This document shows, in pieces, positions 14,641 to 21,497 of a stretch of DNA of 62,152 nt (its first letter is position 1; every line of letters begins with the position of its first letter). Origin of the DNA: Syntrophorhabdaceae bacterium (GTDB lineage Bacteria > Desulfobacterota > Syntrophorhabdia > Syntrophorhabdales > Syntrophorhabdaceae); the NCBI GenBank assembly GCA_026415675.1, contig JAOAGQ010000066.1, positions 1 through 62,152 of the forward strand, in the 5' to 3' direction. The position numbers and the translations under genes are program-made. The notes beneath the pieces were generated by a model. The model ran no database searches. It was not told the origin of the DNA and saw nothing but the letters and a program-made list of their open reading frames with translations.

Positions 14641-16452
14641 CTACCCACCTTTCTTTAATAGGGCGGATAATTCCTTTCCCTTACTATGGGATGGACATGC
14701 GTATAGACATATCCCGCATCTCACACATAGACCCATATCTATCTTGATTCTTTTCTTTTCTTCATCGAAGAGGATCGCAGGGCATTCGAATTTCCTTATA
14801 CAATGCTTGCACCCTATACACCCCTCTTCAAGTTCCAAAGGATGAAACGCTTTTTTGGAAGGGTCTTCTTTTATAGCGAGTATGCAGGGATGCCTCCCTA
14901 TGATCACGGCAGGACCGATGCTCTCCTTCCCCGGTTTTTTTATGTATTCATAGGCCTCTATCAATGTTTTTACCATCCCGGGCATATCGTATGGATCAAC
15001 GACTCTGATGAAATCAATACCGAAACCGGTTAAAACGCCCTCTATGGGGATTGAGTTGGCAGGGGTTCCGTTTGCAGCCATGCCTGACTGGGGTGTAGGC
15101 TGCATGCCTGTCATGGCCGTTGTGCCGTTATCCATGATCACAAGGATAAACCTTTTTCTCTTTTTTACCGCATCGTACAATGGTTCGAGACAGGCATGGA
15201 AGAAGGTGGAGTCCCCTATCGAGGCAAGGATGGGGGGATAGAGACCATCCTGACTGAAAGCATCGTAAAAACCTGAGGCAAGGGTGATACCTCCGCCCAT
15301 ATCGAGACACGTATCCACTGCCCCCATTGTGGTTCCCAGGGTATAACAACCTATATCCCCGGGGAATAGGGCATCCCTATAGGTAAAATTCATCGCATAG
15401 AAACTCGCCCTGTGGGGGCAGCCCGCACAGAGTTTGGGGGGTCTATGGGGAAAACTTATCCCTTTTAACGCCCTTTCAATGTTTTCATCGGGGGAGAAAG
15501 TTTTCTTTAGAAGGCCATATCTTTTGGCAAGCCCTTCAATTGCATACCTTGCGACATCATAGGTGATCTCCCCCTCTCTCGGGATTACCCCATCCCTTCT
15601 GCCCGAGATTTTACCACCATCCTTTAATATTGCCTCTATCACGCTGTCCGTCTCCTCAAGGACGAGGACCCTTTTGTATCCGTTTACAAAATCCGTTAAA
15701 TTTGGGTCAGTAGATTTGACCCCGGGTATTTTTGTGACTTTGTATATCGGGATTCTCTTTTCAAGGCCCAAGCCCTTTATCACATCCCTGGCGATGGAAT
15801 AGCTCATCCCGGAGGCGACAATCGCCAGGGGAGAATCCTCTCCTGGTTTGATCTCTGCAGGGTGTTCTGGGCCCTCAGAAAACTTTACCCTTCTTTTACC
15901 GATGGGGTATATAGGCACATCCTCCCTTGCATGGCTTACCCTGTGGGTGGACCTCAGTATCACGGGGGTTTTATGTTCATAGGAATAATTGACAGAATAA
16001 TACGCAAGATCCGCCGCTTCCTTCGGGGATGCCGGGTCAAAGACAGGGATATTAAAAAGGGTCGCTATCAACCTCGTGTCCTGTTCTGTCTGGGATGATT
16101 GGGGTCCGGGGTCATCGCATGAGATGATCACAAGACCCCCCCTGATGGGCTTCTCAAGGCTATGGATGAGGGAAGGGAAGGCCACATTCAGACCCACCTG
16201 TTTCATCATACATGCCGCTTTTTTCCCTATATAAGATGCGCCATAGGCAACTTCAAAGGCACACCTTTCGTTGGTAGACCACTCTGCATGGATATCCCTG
16301 TTCTCCCTCCTACTGAATGTAATCACCCCCGGTATTATCTCAGAACTGGGTGTACCGGGATATGCCGCTGCCAGTTCAATGCCGGCCTCAACAAGACCTC
16401 GGGCGATTGCAAAATTTCCTATCATAACCTCTCTCTGCCTTTTCACGGCCAA
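14641..16452 (-). CDS. iorA: Indolepyruvate:ferredoxin oxidoreductase, alpha subunit
   Basis: Catalyses reversible oxidative decarboxylation of arylpyruvates (indolepyruvate and related) to arylacetyl-CoA with ferredoxin, together with IorB. It is 603 residues. The N-terminal pyrimidine-binding domain (about 1-300) carries YPGTPSSEI and the Glu-containing ERCAFEVAYGASYIGKKAACM. The C-terminal TPP domain (about 330-530) has LCAGCPHR, IGDSTFFH and VIMDNGTTAMTG, the Mg-TPP site. Two ferredoxin-type [4Fe-4S] motifs end the protein (CIGCKHCIRKFECP and CVRCGICLYACP). It starts 6 bases after iorB and is the last clear gene of the Trp-attenuated operon. Confidence 0.95.
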   Translation of the reverse strand: MAVKRQREVMIGNFAIARGLVEAGIELAAAYPGTPSSEIIPGVITFSRRENRDIHAEWSTNERCAFEVAYGASYIGKKAACMMKQVGLNVAFPSLIHSLEKPIRGGLVIISCDDPGPQSSQTEQDTRLIATLFNIPVFDPASPKEAADLAYYSVNYSYEHKTPVILRSTHRVSHAREDVPIYPIGKRRVKFSEGPEHPAEIKPGEDSPLAIVASGMSYSIARDVIKGLGLEKRIPIYKVTKIPGVKSTDPNLTDFVNGYKRVLVLEETDSVIEAILKDGGKISGRRDGVIPREGEITYDVARYAIEGLAKRYGLLKKTFSPDENIERALKGISFPHRPPKLCAGCPHRASFYAMNFTYRDALFPGDIGCYTLGTTMGAVDTCLDMGGGITLASGFYDAFSQDGLYPPILASIGDSTFFHACLEPLYDAVKKRKRFILVIMDNGTTAMTGMQPTPQSGMAANGTPANSIPIEGVLTGFGIDFIRVVDPYDMPGMVKTLIEAYEYIKKPGKESIGPAVIIGRHPCILAIKEDPSKKAFHPLELEEGCIGCKHCIRKFECPAILFDEEKKRIKIDMGLCVRCGICLYACPSHSKGKELSALLKKGG

Positions 16453-16458
16453 CCTCCA

Positions 16459-17052
16459 TTAAGGTGAAGGGGTATTAAGTAAAAGACCATGTTCCTTATA
16501 ACCTGCGTCAAGGGCCTTTATGTTTACTTCATTTGACCTTCCTTTTGAGTCTGCGGTTACCGTCTCCCTCATCTTCTCGTATGTAAAAGGCCCTACCGAT
16601 TGCCGGGAGAAAAAACCGAGTAGTACCATGTTGGAAGCCTTAATCGTTCCACAGGCAAAAGCGAGTCTATCGCAATCTACGAGGAATATCTTTAGTTGCC
16701 TCGTCGAAAGGATCCCCTCTATCTCTTTCTGTAGGGAGGTTTTTTCCGTATTTACAATGGCAAGCCCCCCTCTTTTCAAAAAATGTATGTTTCGGTAAAA
16801 CTCACTCTCCTCAAAGGAGAGAAGCACATCTGCCTCCTCTCTGCCTATAAGAGGACTATTGAAATCCCCTACCTTCACCATTGATATAACGGAACCGCCC
16901 CTCTGGCTCATACCATACTCATCAGAAGTAAGGCAATGAAAACCCCGAGAAATCGCGGTCTCTATCAAAATAGTTGAGGCGAGGAGGACGCCTCTGCCTC
17001 CAATGCCGGCACATACGATTTGAAGATCCTGATGGCCTTTCTTTCTTCTCAT
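16459..17052 (-). CDS. iorB: Indolepyruvate:ferredoxin oxidoreductase, beta subunit
   Basis: The gamma-type (POR/KOR gamma) subunit partnering IorA. It is 197 residues, with the N-terminal glycine-rich segment GIGGRGVLLASTIL, then DEYGMSQRGGSVISMVKVG, typical of this family. No Fe-S motif is present. The ATG overlaps the stop of the IorA-like gene upstream (ATGA), implying translational coupling. The order IorA-like, IorB, IorA suggests one complex could contain both alpha-type chains; this is inference. Confidence 0.93.
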   Translation of the reverse strand: MRRKKGHQDLQIVCAGIGGRGVLLASTILIETAISRGFHCLTSDEYGMSQRGGSVISMVKVGDFNSPLIGREEADVLLSFEESEFYRNIHFLKRGGLAIVNTEKTSLQKEIEGILSTRQLKIFLVDCDRLAFACGTIKASNMVLLGFFSRQSVGPFTYEKMRETVTADSKGRSNEVNIKALDAGYKEHGLLLNTPSP

Positions 17053-18299
17053 ATGATCCCCTTACAGAAAAGTACAGTCATCTTATCGTGGTTTAAGAAT
17101 CTTTCTACCTCGGCTACATTATCGATTGTGAAGAAATTTGTGAAGCCCCATCCGGTGATTATCGCTTTAATCTCATCCTCTTTCTCGCTTGTCATAACCA
17201 TGAGCACATAATTTGAACCGTTATAGAGGGTATTTATGAAGGCAGGCAAACCTGAATGGAGAAAATGGTTCTCATAGGTAATGGCCAGCACCTTCCTACC
17301 TGGTTCCCTCTTTTTTATACCGTGGGCGATATTGATCGAGGAGGCAGGACCTAGAATATCCCGGGCGACAAAAAAGCCGTACATAACCTCATAGGGCTTC
17401 TCCCTTTTCTGGGTCTCCCTATGGTAAGAGGGTCTTATCTTCGTCTTATTACCCAACTGCATCTCTATGACAGGGTATTCTCCCTCGAGGATATACACCT
17501 CATCCATCCTATCCATAAAGGCGTTGACGAGCTTCAAAGGGATGGGATGGATGGTGGTAAGATAGAGGAGGCTTGTATCCTCTCCGTAAAACTCTAAATA
17601 CTCTCTTTTGCAGGTTATAACCCCGCTTCTATCCTTTATCATCAAAGTATTTCCCGGATAGGTTTCAAACTCCTCTCTTATTGCCTCTATCTTTTCGTTC
17701 AGAAGCCTGTGTAGTTCTAAACGGTATTTTGGTGTTGCCGCCCATCGTCCAGGATTTTTTATAAATTCCGCTTTTCTTGGGTCTTTTTCAGGTTTTTTAT
17801 TGGAAGACCCTTCGCTGCGAAGACCGTTCTTTTCTTCAAAAAACCAATCATTCTCACCCATCTCCGCCTGGATTAATACAGGGGTTGCGTATTTATCGGA
17901 TATAAAATATCCGTACTCTATGATCTTTGAAAGGTTTGCCATATCTTCTGTAATAAGGAGGGGTAGTTTGGAAAAATATCCAATCGGGGTTATCTCCTCT
18001 TCGGTCTCTTTCAGGCACAGAACCACATATCCCCCTGTGATACCTGTATAGGCAGAACTCATCACAGGGTCTAAGGTTTTGTAAAGACCTTCTGTTGACA
18101 GGATACACATGGTTTTCTTGCCGGTAATTGCCCCTGCGTAGGCAGTTTCAAAGGCCACCTTTTCATTAATGGATATTTCGTGGTAAAAGCTCGGGTATCC
18201 TTCCTTCAACTGCGTAAGGGTATGACCCATTGATGAATTCGTCGTGTAGATGAGCTGGGGGGCATTGTTCAAGATTAATCGGCATATCCTTTGATACAT
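17049..18299 (-). CDS. IorA-like protein with degenerate TPP domain and no ferredoxin domain
   Basis: 416 residues, resembling the N-terminal pyrimidine-binding domain of IorA: SSMGHTLTQLKEG, then ISINEKVAFETAYAGAITGKKTMCIL, aligning with the ERCAFEVAYGAS...KKAACM segment of the neighbouring IorA. The C-terminal part keeps the outline of the TPP domain, but the metal-binding GDS reads YEN (LAITYENHFLHSGL), the later Asn-bearing MDNGT reads MTSEK, and the CPHR segment and both ferredoxin motifs are absent. It therefore probably cannot bind Mg-TPP by itself. The ATG at 18299 has AAGGGG 7 bases upstream; a longer start would run into the aminotransferase gene. It lies between the aminotransferase and iorB in the operon. 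Confidence 0.8.
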   Translation of the reverse strand: MYQRICRLILNNAPQLIYTTNSSMGHTLTQLKEGYPSFYHEISINEKVAFETAYAGAITGKKTMCILSTEGLYKTLDPVMSSAYTGITGGYVVLCLKETEEEITPIGYFSKLPLLITEDMANLSKIIEYGYFISDKYATPVLIQAEMGENDWFFEEKNGLRSEGSSNKKPEKDPRKAEFIKNPGRWAATPKYRLELHRLLNEKIEAIREEFETYPGNTLMIKDRSGVITCKREYLEFYGEDTSLLYLTTIHPIPLKLVNAFMDRMDEVYILEGEYPVIEMQLGNKTKIRPSYHRETQKREKPYEVMYGFFVARDILGPASSINIAHGIKKREPGRKVLAITYENHFLHSGLPAFINTLYNGSNYVLMVMTSEKEDEIKAIITGWGFTNFFTIDNVAEVERFLNHDKMTVLFCKGII

Positions 18300-18324
18300 A
18301 ACACACCCCTTATAAAAAATATGT

Positions 18325-19443
18325 TCATGCCATCTTCCGGAGGGTCTCAATTCCCTTCAAAAGCATCTCTTCCCGGACGGCAAAGGAGACCCTCATATGG
18401 CTTTTTCTCTGGGAGAAGATGCTCCCCGGTATTATGAAGAGATTATTTTTAAGGGCCCTCTCTACAAACCTATCTCCATCGCCGTCGGGGGATTCGGGAA
18501 AGATGAAATACGCCCCTTCGGGTTTTACCACATTATATTTATCCTTAAGCCCCTCGTATATCAGATCCCTCTTCCTTTTATACTGATCGATATAGCTCCC
18601 CATATCGTAATCGAGGGCCAGAAGGGCTGCCTTCTGGGCAAAGGAGTTGACACTGCTAAAAACATACTGCTGCATTGTAATCATGGCCTGTATAATCTCC
18701 TTCGGGCCTGCCACATATCCGAGCCTCCACCCTGTCATACCCCAGGTCTTGGAGAAACCCCCGAATGTCAATGTTTTATCATAGATCATCCCGGGGAAAA
18801 AGGGTTTATTATCGTCATAGAGGAAGCGATCGTAGATCTGGTCGGAGAATATTATTAAATCAAATTCCAAAGCCACATCCACAACGGTCTCCACCTCATT
18901 TTTTGTCAAAACCGTTCCTGTTGGATTGTTGGGGCTGTTTATGAGTATCACCCTTGTCTTTTTATTTATCTTTTCCCTTAAAAGGTCAGCCTTTAGCTTA
19001 AAGTCTGGATATGTATCTATGAAGACCGGCCTTCCTCCAAGGAGGTAAACCTGATACTCATATAAGACAAAGTAGGGATCGGGGATTATCACCTCCTCTG
19101 AGGGGTTGAGGATAACCATGAGGGCAAGGAGTAGACCCCCGGTAACCCCGGGGGTAACGATAACATCGTCACAGATGATACCCTGAGACTTGAGATAAAC
19201 AAGGATTTTTTCTCTCAACTCAGGTATGCCCCCGGAAGGGGTATATTTGTTGAACCCCTCCCTGATCCATCTTATCCCTTCTTCCTTAATCGGTGATGGT
19301 ATGTCAAAATCGGGCTCGCCGATACTCAGATTGATGGGATTTTTCACCCTGTTTGCGAGATCAAAAATCTTTCTTACCCCGGAGGGTTTTATCTTTAAAA
19401 TTTTATCTGACAGTAACATCCCTTCGTTGTTCTTCTCTCCCAT
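18325..19443 (-). CDS. Class I/II PLP aminotransferase (aspartate/aromatic type)
   Basis: 372 residues, fold type I. LSIGEPDFDIPSP, the substrate-site segment INSPNNPTG and the PLP-binding Lys232 in GFSKTWGMTGWRLGY are clear, followed by the C-terminal Arg region (MRVSFAV). This subgroup transaminates aspartate, aromatic or branched-chain substrates and the exact preference is not readable. Its place beside IorAB and TrpB2 suggests it links arylpyruvates (indolepyruvate, phenylpyruvate) with aromatic amino acids. A second ATG eight codons in is possible. It follows the 78-residue gene by 20 bases. Confidence 0.9.
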   Translation of the reverse strand: MGEKNNEGMLLSDKILKIKPSGVRKIFDLANRVKNPINLSIGEPDFDIPSPIKEEGIRWIREGFNKYTPSGGIPELREKILVYLKSQGIICDDVIVTPGVTGGLLLALMVILNPSEEVIIPDPYFVLYEYQVYLLGGRPVFIDTYPDFKLKADLLREKINKKTRVILINSPNNPTGTVLTKNEVETVVDVALEFDLIIFSDQIYDRFLYDDNKPFFPGMIYDKTLTFGGFSKTWGMTGWRLGYVAGPKEIIQAMITMQQYVFSSVNSFAQKAALLALDYDMGSYIDQYKRKRDLIYEGLKDKYNVVKPEGAYFIFPESPDGDGDRFVERALKNNLFIIPGSIFSQRKSHMRVSFAVREEMLLKGIETLRKMA

Positions 19444-19463: not shown

Positions 19464-19700
19464 TTAACCATGTTTTTTCGTCATATTCAAGGTATCGATG
19501 ATCCTCTCCATCCTCGATTTTGGGCGACTGCAAAAGGCCTTCTTGAGTTCTTCCTGGGAGAACCTCTCTTCAAGGAAAGCAACTACATCCATTCTTTTAC
19601 CCCAGCACCGTATAAAATCCTGACAGGGAAGACCTTCGTTCATGGCTACACAATAATCGATTTCCATCAACATACCGATCTTTACGCAGTAGACCTCCAT
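19464..19700 (-). CDS. Small four-cysteine protein of unknown function
   Basis: 78 residues, not recognised as a named family. The N-terminal half has Cys5, Cys17, Cys26 and Cys32 (YCVAMNEGLPCQDFIRCWG), with a fifth Cys57. The C-terminal half is a charged helix (VVAFLEERFSQEELKKAF...RMERIIDTL). The Cys spacing could hold a metal ion or a small Fe-S cluster, but no standard motif fits. It is 26 bases after trpB2 and 20 bases before the aminotransferase, on the same strand, so it is almost certainly part of the operon. The spacing and sensible composition argue for a real gene. Confidence 0.65.
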   Translation of the reverse strand: MEVYCVKIGMLMEIDYCVAMNEGLPCQDFIRCWGKRMDVVAFLEERFSQEELKKAFCSRPKSRMERIIDTLNMTKKHG

Positions 19701-19726: not shown

Positions 19727-21085
19727 CTACCGGGGCCTCGGAAACTTTTCCAGATTTTTTATAAGCCTTTCCAGTTCCTCCTTTGGAAGGGTTGAATCCT
19801 CGAGCCTTCCCGATAGATAGGCATCGTATGCGGCAAGGTCGATGATCCCGTGGCCACTCCAGTTAACGAGTATTACCCTCTCCTTGCCCTCTTCCTTTGC
19901 CCTCTTTGCCTCCTCGATTACACAGGCAATGGCATGGTCTGTCTCCGGGGCAGGGATAAAACCTTCAGTTCTCGCAAATATTAAGCCTGCCTCAAAAGTC
20001 TCAAGCTGGTTATATGCCCTTGCCTCTATGAGACCATCTACAAGGACCCTGCTTACAAGGGGTGCCATTCCGTGGTACCTCAAACCCCCTGCGTGGATAG
20101 GGGCAGGGACAAAGGCATGGCCGATTGAGTGCATGGGGAGTAGAGGGGTTGTCTCAGCAGTGTCCCCGAAGTCGTATACATAAGGACCCTTTGTCATGGT
20201 GGGGCATGAGGCCGGTTCACAGGCCACAATCCTTACCTCTCTGCCATGGATCTTATCCCTTACAAAAGGAAAGGAGATACCTGCAAAATTGCTCCCCCCT
20301 CCGGCACATCCTATGACTATGTCGGGGTATTCCCCTATCGTCTCGAGCTGTTTCTGGGCCTCAAGGCCTATTATGGTCTGGTGCATGAGGACATGATTTA
20401 GAACACTCCCTAAAGAGTATTTCGTGTCTTTTGAAGTCACCGCATCTTCTATCGCCTCGCTGATGGCGATTCCGAGGCTTCCTGGATGTTCAGGGTTTTG
20501 TTCATAGTATTTCCTGCCGGCATTCGTATCTCCGCTCGGACTCGGGACACACTTACCACCCCATACTTCCATCATGATCTTCCTGTATGGTTTCTGGTTG
20601 TAACTGACCCTGACCATATATATTTTCAACTCAAGGCCAAACTGGTTGCAGGCAAAGGAGAGGGCGCTTCCCCATTGTCCAGCCCCTGTCTCTGTTGTAA
20701 GCCTTTTGGTGCCAAATTCCCTGTTGTAGTATGCCTGGGGTATGGCGGTGTTGGGCTTGTGGCTTCCAGGGGGGCTTGTCCCCTCGTTTTTAAAGTATAT
20801 CCTTGCCGGAGTGTTGAGAAACCTCTCGAGGTTGTAAGCCCTGTATAGGGGTGTTGGTCGCCACATCAAAAGTTTTTCCATCACCTCTTCGGGGATTTCT
20901 ACCCATCTCTCCGGGCTCACCTCCTGTTCGATGAGATTCATGGGGAAGATAGAGGCGAGCATATCCGGGGTAATAGGCTCTCCTGTGGCAGGATTCAAAG
21001 GGGGAGGAAGGGGATTTGGAAGATCCGCCTGGATATTGTACCAGGCCCTGGGCATGTCCTTCTCACTTAAAAGTATCTTTTTCAT
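19727..21085 (-). CDS. trpB: TrpB2-type tryptophan synthase beta chain
   Basis: A PLP enzyme that joins indole and serine to give tryptophan. It is 452 residues, longer than TrpB1, with the N-terminal extension typical of the TrpB2 subfamily. PLP Lys110 lies in [10 protein letters not shown], the [12 protein letters not shown] motif and the phosphate-binding [11 protein letters not shown] are intact, and [11 protein letters not shown] is near the end. TrpB2 proteins often act without TrpA, using free indole. No trpA or other trp gene is nearby. The ATG at 21085 follows AAGGAGG (21091-21097) by 5 bases. Expression is controlled by the Trp attenuator immediately upstream. Confidence 0.95.
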
Positions 21086-21100
21086 AGACACCTCCTTAAT

Positions 21101-21137
21101 AAAATAAAAAAGGCCATGAGCCTTACCCATGGCCTTT
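21101..21137 (-). terminator. Attenuator terminator hairpin of the trpB2 operon
   Basis: On the minus strand AAGGCCATG, a 9-10 base loop, and CATGGCCTT form a 9-base-pair GC-rich stem followed directly by TTTTTTATTTT (complement of 21101-21111), a textbook intrinsic terminator. It ends 15 bases before the trpB2 start codon, so it must be bypassed for expression. Confidence 0.9.
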
Positions 21138-21200
21138 AAAACAAAGACCACGGAGGGTGTGAGCCCGTCCGTGGTCCGGTAATACGGTCTCACACCATTC
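21138..21200 (-). promoter_or_regulatory. Tryptophan attenuator: alternative-pairing region
   Basis: Going 5' to 3' on the minus strand: segment A GGTGTGAG (21189-21196), segment 1 GACCACGGA (21168-21176), segment A' CTCACACC (21156-21163), segment 2 TCCGTGGTC (21146-21154), then the terminator arms 3 and 4. A pairs perfectly with A'; 1 pairs perfectly with 2; the extended segment 2 (CCGTGGTCTTT, 21143-21153) pairs over 11 bases with AAAGGCCATGG of arm 3 (two G-U pairs), making an antiterminator. A ribosome stalled at the Trp codons leaves A free to pair with A', which excludes 1:2, so 2:3 forms and blocks the terminator. A ribosome at the stop codon covers A, so 1:2 and 3:4 form. The mechanism is inferred; the pairings are seen. 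Confidence 0.85.
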
Positions 21201-21248
21201 CTATTGCCACCACCAAACCATGCTGTAAACTTTTTTTCCTCTCATCAT
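21201..21248 (-). CDS. Trp leader peptide [15 protein letters not shown]
   Basis: A 15-codon open frame on the minus strand, ending GTT TGG TGG TGG CAA TAG: three consecutive Trp codons before the stop, far too unlikely by chance directly upstream of a Trp-synthase gene and an intrinsic terminator. The start may be ATG 21248 (or the next codon), only a few bases after the predicted transcription start, or the in-frame ATG at 21221 giving a 6-residue peptide MVWWWQ. An AGAGGA lies 15 bases before the inner ATG, which is rather far. Confidence 0.85.
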
Positions 21249-21258
21249 AGTGTTCGTT

Positions 21259-21287
21259 AATTAACACAAAACCGTTTTTACTGTCAA
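21259..21287 (-). promoter_or_regulatory. Promoter of the trpB2-ior operon
   Basis: On the minus strand TTGACA (complement of 21282-21287), a 17-base spacer and TTAATT (21259-21264). The -10 lies inside the palindrome GTTAATTAAC, which could be an operator, though it does not match the TrpR box I know. Transcription would start near 21252, just before the leader peptide. Confidence 0.6.
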
Positions 21288-21412: not shown

Positions 21413-21497
21413 GCCTGGGTGGCGGAATAGGTAGACGCAAGGGACTTAAAATCCCTCGGTGGTTTCCACTGTACGAGTTCGATTCTCGTCCCAGGCA
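21413..21497 (+). tRNA. tRNA-Leu (anticodon UAA)
   Basis: 85 bases. The acceptor stem GCCTGGG/CCCAGGC pairs fully with discriminator A at 21497. The anticodon stem-loop AGGGA-CTTAAAA-TCCCT gives anticodon TAA. A long variable arm (CGGTGGTTTCCACTG region) marks a class II tRNA, and the T-arm loop reads GTTCGATTC. The 3' CCA is not encoded (ATT follows), so it must be added enzymatically. Confidence 0.95.

What the first reader, a model, noticed from the sequence alone, without database searches (positions are those of the whole stretch)
21101..21248. Classical tryptophan attenuator in front of a trpB2 gene, with a three-Trp leader peptide and an extra regulatory pairing
Seen: a 15-codon frame ending Met-Val-Trp-Trp-Trp-Gln-stop, a strong intrinsic terminator 15 bases before the trpB2 start, and four mutually exclusive pairings (A:A', 1:2, 2:3, 3:4). 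Known: ribosome-mediated attenuation controls trp operons in enteric bacteria. Inferred: a ribosome stalled at Trp codons lets A pair with A', which excludes 1:2 and frees 2 to form the antiterminator; a ribosome at the stop covers A and leads to termination. The A:A' pair adds a step to the usual 1-2-3-4 model because the Trp codons lie about 35 bases before segment 1. Attenuation of a TrpB2/IOR operon rather than trpEDCFBA is not something I know to be described.
Basis: partly seen in the sequence, partly recalled or inferred. Interest (0 to 1): 0.85.

Follow-up and report, generated by a model that had tools for sequence, protein, structure and literature searches.

The report
Tryptophan-sensing switch before trpB2 operon
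A short stretch of RNA in front of a tryptophan-salvage operon looks like a switch that stops transcription unless ribosomes stall for lack of tryptophan, and relatives reuse the same two-terminator design, with other codons in the sensor, in front of genes for other amino acids.

Summary
On the minus strand, 21248-21201 encodes [15 protein letters not shown]; a chain of mutually exclusive pairings follows (A:A', 1:2, 2:3, 3:4) and ends in an intrinsic terminator before trpB2. Homologous trpB2 leaders keep it: 27 of 30 loci in the family (Syntrophorhabdaceae) carry Trp-run leaders, and 31 aligned leaders show compensatory changes in A:A' and 1:2. The eight core 2:3 pairs form in 31/31 leaders, against 11/31 for the equally similar but unneeded 1:4 pairing. 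Segment A starts 13-14 nt after the last Trp codon in most leaders, about the ribosome's front edge. Additions: (i) in most relatives the 1:2 hairpin is followed by a U-tract, so one switch controls two interlocked terminators; (ii) the leader ATG lies 0-4 nt from the predicted transcription start, so the leader mRNA is probably leaderless; (iii) a model of this RNA, with at most one sensor codon in it, finds paralogues whose leaders match the downstream gene: Phe/Tyr before aminotransferases, Phe/Tyr/Trp before DAHP synthase, Trp before TRAP transporters and trpE. It is a new variant of ribosome-mediated attenuation, not a new principle.

The parts
21260..21287 (-). Predicted sigma-70-type promoter: TTGACA (21287-21282), 16 nt, GTTAAT (21265-21260)
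   Evidence: Sequence. TTGAC at -35 in 65 of 65 leaders of the order, most often 35-40 nt before the leader start codon. Prediction only.
21201..21248 (-). Leader peptide [18 protein letters not shown]-stop; predicted 5' UTR about 4 nt (leaderless)
   Evidence: Sequence; homologues with WWW/WWWW leaders; UTR estimate.
21207..21215 (-). Three consecutive Trp codons (sensor)
   Evidence: the Trp run is the conserved part of the peptide in 31 leaders.
21184..21196 (-). Segment A (GGTGTGAGACCGT)
   Evidence: Pairs with A'; 13-pair helix 96.8% kept, 7 pairs with two-sided changes in 31 leaders; starts 13 nt after the first base of the last Trp codon.
21156..21168 (-). Segment A' (ACGGGCTCACACC), inside the loop and inner stem of the 1:2 hairpin
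21145..21177 (-). 1:2 hairpin (GGACCACGGA / TCCGTGGTCT); terminator T1 in most relatives, weaker U-tract here (CTTTGTTTT)
   Evidence: 97.5% of cells paired, 6 pairs with two-sided changes; U-tracts listed.
21125..21154 (-). 2:3 antiterminator (TCCGTGGTCTTTG / TAAAGGCCATGGG)
   Evidence: Core 8 pairs formed in 31/31 leaders against 11/31 for control 1:4.
21109..21137 (-). 3:4 intrinsic terminator T2 with U-rich tail
21091..21097 (-). Ribosome-binding site AAGGAGG of trpB2
   Evidence: Sequence.
19727..21085 (-). trpB2 (TrpB-like PLP enzyme, 452 aa)
   Evidence: NF009057 and TIGR01415 above cut-off.
19464..19700 (-). Small ORF (78 aa, Cys-containing) between trpB2 and the aminotransferase
   Evidence: Read from sequence; no other test.
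18325..19443 (-). Class I/II aminotransferase of the operon
   Evidence: PF00155; at L188 and L190 this gene directly follows a Trp leader without trpB2 in front.
17049..18350 (-). Protein related to the first half of IOR alpha (433 aa)
   Evidence: TIGR03336 below cut-off, residues 37-299.
16459..17052 (-). iorB-like subunit
   Evidence: PF01558 above cut-off; IOR beta models below cut-off.
14641..16452 (-). iorA-like subunit with ferredoxin domain
   Evidence: TIGR03336 506 bits, below the 650.9 cut-off.

Best explanation
A ribosome-mediated transcription attenuator that senses charged tRNA-Trp and controls the trpB2-aminotransferase-IOR operon. A ribosome loads at the very 5' end of the nascent RNA. 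If Trp is short it stalls with a Trp codon in its A site and its front edge stops just before segment A. A then pairs with A', which keeps 1 from pairing with 2. Segment 2 pairs with 3 as it emerges, so terminator 3:4 (T2) cannot form and RNA polymerase goes on. If Trp is plentiful the ribosome runs to the stop codon and covers A; 1:2 forms (itself terminator-like, T1, in most relatives), 3 pairs with 4, and transcription ends. One decision therefore closes or opens two interlocked terminators. Shown by comparison: conservation of leader, pairings and spacing. Inferred: stalling, termination, readthrough, and that 1:2 terminates. The operon would be induced by Trp starvation, so its products (indole to Trp by TrpB2; possibly aryl-acetate to aryl-pyruvate to amino acid by IOR plus aminotransferase) most likely act in the making of Trp.
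For: Leaders with Trp runs before trpB2 in 27/30 family loci and in other families of the order. Covariation in A:A' and 1:2. 2:3 kept in 31/31 against 1:4 in 11/31. A starts 14 nt after the first base of the last Trp codon at the median (13 in the window), and -4 to +7 from the stop: free when stalled, covered at the stop. Constrained folds of partial transcripts give A:A'+2:3 with A free and 1:2 with a ribosome at the stop. Independent test: model R1, built from the RNA after the Trp run, finds loci whose leaders carry codons for the amino acid of the downstream gene. The same aminotransferase-IOR type genes stand directly behind a Trp leader without trpB2 at L188 and L190.
Against: No expression data. 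The full-length minimum-energy fold is always the terminated form, so the ON state must be trapped kinetically. No 5' protector segment was found, so without any translation the model predicts readthrough, unlike E. coli trp. In the window T1's U-tract is broken by a G. Three family copies (L016, L020, L144) lack the Trp leader.
Confidence: 0.86

Rival explanations
1. Only T1 (1:2) is regulated, by A:A' as a plain antiterminator; T2 is a duplicated back-up terminator and 2:3 is a by-product of the two stems having similar sequence.
For: T1 has a U-tract in most leaders while T2 has lost its U-tract in L011 and L019; T1 and T2 share a GGCCATGG-type core.
Against: If duplication explained 2:3, 1:4 should be as well kept; 2:3 core pairs form in 31/31 and 1:4 in 11/31. 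In L117 T1 has almost no U-tract, so T2 must do the work there.
Confidence: 0.2
2. The terminated leader RNA acts in trans as a small leaderless mRNA or sRNA (as rnTrpL/peTrpL in Sinorhizobium meliloti), with attenuation as its source or as a second function.
For: Predicted leaderless start; S. meliloti trpL RNA starts at its ATG and acts in trans (PMC7298713).
Against: Outside the Trp run the peptide is poorly conserved, which does not favour a peptide function; no target was searched.
Confidence: 0.12
3. A tRNA- or metabolite-binding riboswitch or an RNA-binding protein works the terminator and the ORF is incidental.
For: Structured 5' region with alternative folds.
Against: No Rfam family at gathering threshold, T-box included; leader codons switch with gene function in paralogues; Trp-to-A spacing is held.
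Confidence: 0.03
4. Terminators that insulate the operon from upstream transcription, with a chance Trp-rich frame.
For: Tandem GGCCATGG terminators occur without a leader at one R1 hit (L211) and L144 keeps a hairpin without leader.
Against: Conservation, covariation and codon/gene match as above.
Confidence: 0.01

Closest known systems
E. coli/Salmonella trp attenuator (Rfam RF00513 Trp_leader)
   Same: Trp-codon leader peptide; ribosome position chooses between antiterminator and intrinsic terminator.
   Different: Not an RF00513 match; no segment found that pairs with A when there is no ribosome, so default without translation is predicted ON; one more helix (A:A'); two terminator-like hairpins; target is trpB2-IOR, not trpEDCBA; probably leaderless leader.
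Salmonella his, leu and ilv-type attenuators with a longer chain of alternative stems (A to F) (from own knowledge); 'chains of RNA helices' credited to Lopatovskaya et al. 2010 in PMC4833913
   Same: Chain of helices in which an early pairing decides a late terminator.
   Different: There only the last hairpin is a terminator (own knowledge); here the middle hairpin is terminator-like too in most relatives. The 2010 paper itself was not available.
Sinorhizobium meliloti trpL (rnTrpL/peTrpL), PMC7298713
   Same: RNA starts at the ATG of a Trp-codon leader peptide; attenuation.
   Different: Controls trpE(G); different phylum; functions in trans shown there only.
Geobacter conserved sequence 5' of 'tryptophan (iorAB-paaK)', GSU1739.1 / Gmet_P1827 (PMC2700814, Table 2)
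   Same: A conserved 5' element before a Trp-assigned IOR operon.
   Different: Listed only among possible promoters and riboswitches; no leader peptide or attenuator proposed; not examined here.
Corynebacterium diphtheriae trpB2A candidate attenuator (PMC1262725)
   Same: Candidate classical Trp attenuator before a second trpB.
   Different: There trpB2 is paired with trpA; Actinobacteria; no IOR genes mentioned.
Salmonella mgtCBR tandem attenuators (PMC3641672, title and abstract only)
   Same: More than one attenuator decision in one leader.
   Different: Two leader ORFs; here one leader ORF controls two interlocked hairpins.

Membership tests
Ribosome-mediated (classical) transcription attenuator | Short leader ORF with a run of codons for the pathway's amino acid | tested here: met
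   [15 protein letters not shown]; conserved Trp run in 31 leaders.
Ribosome-mediated (classical) transcription attenuator | Intrinsic terminator between leader ORF and first gene | tested here: met
   21137-21109.
Ribosome-mediated (classical) transcription attenuator | Antiterminator that overlaps the terminator and excludes it | tested here: met
   2:3 kept in 31/31; A:A' covariation.
Ribosome-mediated (classical) transcription attenuator | Geometry: stalled ribosome and ribosome at stop leave different segments free | tested here: met
   A at +14 (median) from last Trp codon, +2 (median) from stop; constrained folds.
Ribosome-mediated (classical) transcription attenuator | Leader is translated and readthrough depends on charged tRNA-Trp | not testable with these tools
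   Needs experiments.
Rfam RF00513 Trp_leader (enteric type) | Match to the covariance model at gathering score | tested here: not met
   No match.
Rfam RF00513 Trp_leader (enteric type) | Segment overlapping the Trp codons that pairs with the antiterminator strand without a ribosome | tested here: not met
   Without ribosome the window's RNA folds A:A' up to segment 3.
T-box riboswitch | RF00230 match | tested here: not met
   No match at gathering score.
Leaderless leader-peptide attenuator (as S. meliloti trpL) | Transcript starts at or next to the leader start codon | tested here: inconclusive
   Promoter prediction only: 5' UTR 0-4 nt in most of 65 leaders of the order; start sites not mapped.

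The most novel reading that the evidence does not exclude
A phylum-wide class of amino-acid attenuators in Thermodesulfobacteriota with one scaffold (switch helix A:A', terminator T1, 2:3 antiterminator, terminator T2) whose sensor codons have been exchanged (Trp, Phe, Tyr, Phe/Tyr, Phe/Tyr/Trp, and apparently Leu and Ile/Leu/Val). In Syntrophorhabdales it runs on leaderless leader mRNAs, is ON by default without translation, and places TrpB2, IOR, aminotransferases and TRAP uptake (and elsewhere in the phylum PaaK) in amino-acid-starvation regulons, implying that IOR works in the synthetic (reductive carboxylation) direction.
Probability: 0.45. Interest if true: 0.75.

Novelty: new variant of a known kind. 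Interest (0 to 1): 0.64.

Why it matters
It gives a direct, testable regulatory reading for genes whose working direction is not settled by sequence: an operon induced when Trp runs out argues that TrpB2 and IOR make Trp in these anaerobes. The codon/gene match in paralogues also assigns likely amino-acid roles to aminotransferases, TRAP transporters and a paaK-like gene that sequence alone cannot assign. The interlocked two-terminator layout and the leaderless start are design variants of a textbook mechanism, in a group outside the gammaproteobacteria where one survey placed the origin of amino-acid attenuator motifs (PMC3766115).

Tried and rejected
Rfam at gathering scores: only tRNAs. Trp leader directly before trpE in the same genome: none seen, trpE lies inside a longer run of aromatic genes whose likely start carries a Phe/Tyr/Trp leader (C16:15539). 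Trp leaders in the 600 nt before iorA in 30 IOR loci of the phylum: no convincing one, so Trp attenuation of IOR is not general; that scan did not look at the first gene of each operon. Chance or duplicated-terminator origin of 2:3: rejected by the 1:4 control. Internal terminator or promoter between trpB2 and the aminotransferase: none convincing, a small ORF fills the gap. An automatic T1 finder on phylum loci picked the wrong hairpin in several; those pairings were not used as counts.

Full report
WHAT IS THERE. The feature lies on the minus strand. A predicted promoter (TTGACA 21287-21282) is followed by a 15-codon [18 protein letters not shown] (21248-21201), then segments A (21196-21184), 1 (21177-21168), A' (21168-21156), 2 (21154-21142), 3 (21137-21125) and 4 (21121-21109) with a U-rich tail, AAGGAGG, and trpB2 from 21085. 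The 161-nt leader folds at -57.7 kcal/mol against -41.4 (sd 3.8) for dinucleotide shuffles. The operon reads trpB2 (NF009057 and TIGR01415 above cut-off), a 78-aa ORF, a class I/II aminotransferase, a 433-aa protein related to the first half of IOR alpha, and iorB-like and iorA-like genes, the IOR models all below their curated cut-offs.

CONSERVATION. TrpB2 homologues were collected from 79 relatives and from genome contigs. Of 30 family trpB2 loci with enough upstream DNA, 27 carry a leader peptide with a Trp run; L016, L020 and L144 do not. Leaders are also present in two other families of the order and, less alike, in distant records, among them a Spirochaetota MAG (L064) that matches the RNA model at E = 1.9e-5.

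COVARIATION. In an alignment of 31 leaders A:A' is 96.8% paired with two-sided changes at 7 of 13 pairs, and 1:2 is 97.5% paired with two-sided changes at 6 of 13. In covariation score both exceed every shuffle and all slid registers. 3:4 is weaker, 89.9%. 2:3 shows mostly one-sided changes, as expected of strands with two partners. A control shows that it is selected: the eight core 2:3 pairs form in all 31 leaders, whereas 1:4, which similarity of the two hairpins would equally produce, is complete in only 11.

GEOMETRY. Segment A begins 14 nt (median; 13 in the window) after the first base of the last Trp codon and 2 nt (median) after the first base of the stop codon. In the window the stop has moved (7 nt) but the Trp-to-A distance has hardly changed. 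From general knowledge the ribosome covers about 12-13 nt beyond the first base of the A-site codon, so a ribosome on the last Trp codon just leaves A free and one at the stop covers it. Constrained folding agrees: with RNA made up to segment 3, A:A'+2:3 is the minimum-energy fold with no ribosome or with one stalled at any Trp codon, and 1:2 forms with a ribosome at the stop. Full-length RNA always favours the terminated fold, so timing must hold the ON state.

TWO TERMINATORS. In most relatives segment 2 is followed by a U-tract (for example CCGTGGCCTTTTTG), so 1:2 is terminator-like; in L011 and L019 T2 has lost its U-tract while T1 has one, and in L117 the reverse holds. The window's own T1 tail is CTTTGTTTT and may be weak. 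I infer a cascade: A:A' blocks T1 and at the same time frees 2 to block T2.

LEADERLESS START. In 65 leaders of the order (trpB2 and paralogues) TTGAC lies at the -35 position in all, and the leader start codon is 0-4 nt from the predicted start site in most. In other families of the phylum most predicted 5' UTRs are longer, about 15-25 nt, often with an AGGA-type site. Start sites are predicted, not mapped. S. meliloti trpL is a known leaderless case (PMC7298713).

A FAMILY OF SWITCHES. Model R1 covers the RNA from about the last Trp codon on. In the window's genome it finds three places: this one; C29:24644, before a tandem pair of aminotransferases with leader MAMFGTCTFYGFYFYFRGLHPGIVLL; and C16:15539, before a DAHP synthase with leader MNRKYECGMEITFRNYFGFWYFYSMPHPCPF, whose fold has a 13-bp 5' protector stem and looks like the classical 1-2-3-4 type. 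In 35 of 40 genomes searched (own and relatives) it matches. Leaders follow gene function: Trp runs before TRAP transporter subunits (L184-L186) and directly before the aminotransferase of the IOR genes (L188, L190); Phe/Tyr before about 20 aminotransferases; Phe/Tyr/Trp before DAHP synthase and pheA; poly-Tyr before another aminotransferase (L198, L221). Aromatic codons are clustered in these leaders (28 of 40 reach 5 in 8 codons, none on the reverse strand). Across the phylum 65 of 198 genomes match at E <= 1e-4 (weak matches may include plain tandem terminators). Of 24 high-ranking loci examined, 22 have aromatic leaders, before trpE, trpB2, DAHP synthase and other genes, including a Phe-rich leader before a gene that I read as paaK (L240). 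Two others, before genes I read as leuA and ilvB, have Leu-rich and Ile/Leu/Val-rich frames by eye. Gene names in that set, the TrpE of L246/L209 excepted, are by reading and were not scanned.

FUNCTION. Starvation induction implies that the operon serves Trp making. TrpB2 can take free indole; IOR with an aminotransferase could turn indole-acetate-derived acyl-CoA into Trp. This is inference. A scan of 30 IOR loci in the phylum found no convincing Trp leader just before iorA, so the link is lineage-specific.

PRIOR ART. In the open library I found no paper that describes Trp attenuation of a trpB2-IOR operon. Near cases are a candidate attenuator before C. diphtheriae trpB2A (PMC1262725), a conserved sequence before Geobacter iorAB-paaK (PMC2700814), and chains of helices credited to Lopatovskaya et al. 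2010 (PMC4833913), which I could not read and which may include related predictions. [quoted passage not shown]

VERDICT. A real, conserved Trp attenuator; mechanism well supported by comparison, untested by experiment; a new variant of a known kind.

Noticed in passing
G000:C29:24644-24742 (L148 4547-4760): Phe/Tyr-rich leader and tandem terminators of the same layout before a tandem pair of aminotransferase genes in the same genome.
   Followed up: yes
G000:C16:15539-15632 (L183): Phe/Tyr/Trp leader with a classical 5' protector stem before DAHP synthase, upstream of the aromatic/trp gene run.
   Followed up: partly
L184, L185, L186 (L187, L217 degenerate): Trp-run leaders before TRAP transporter subunits; substrate unknown, perhaps an indolic or aryl acid.
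   Followed up: partly
L240: Phe-rich leader before a gene that reads as phenylacetate-CoA ligase, which suggests Phe made from phenylacetate.
   Followed up: no
L222: Leader MIRRKGWFNFYYFYYYSFRDRSAFLCQIT before a 500-aa protein with no NCBIfam match.
   Followed up: no
L020, upstream of trpB2: T1 and T2 kept but leader Trp codons and segment A lost: a possible decayed or differently regulated copy.
   Followed up: no
window 19700-19464, minus: 78-aa Cys-containing ORF between trpB2 and the aminotransferase.
   Followed up: no
window 18350-17049, minus: 433-aa protein related only to the first part of IOR alpha (residues 37-299), next to a complete iorA-like gene.
   Followed up: no
L064 7752-7862: Spirochaetota MAG with the same attenuator layout (WWWW leader, two terminators) before trpB2; old transfer or convergence.
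   Followed up: partly
window 21413-21497, plus: tRNA gene (85 nt) divergent from the leader, about 130 nt beyond the promoter.
   Followed up: no
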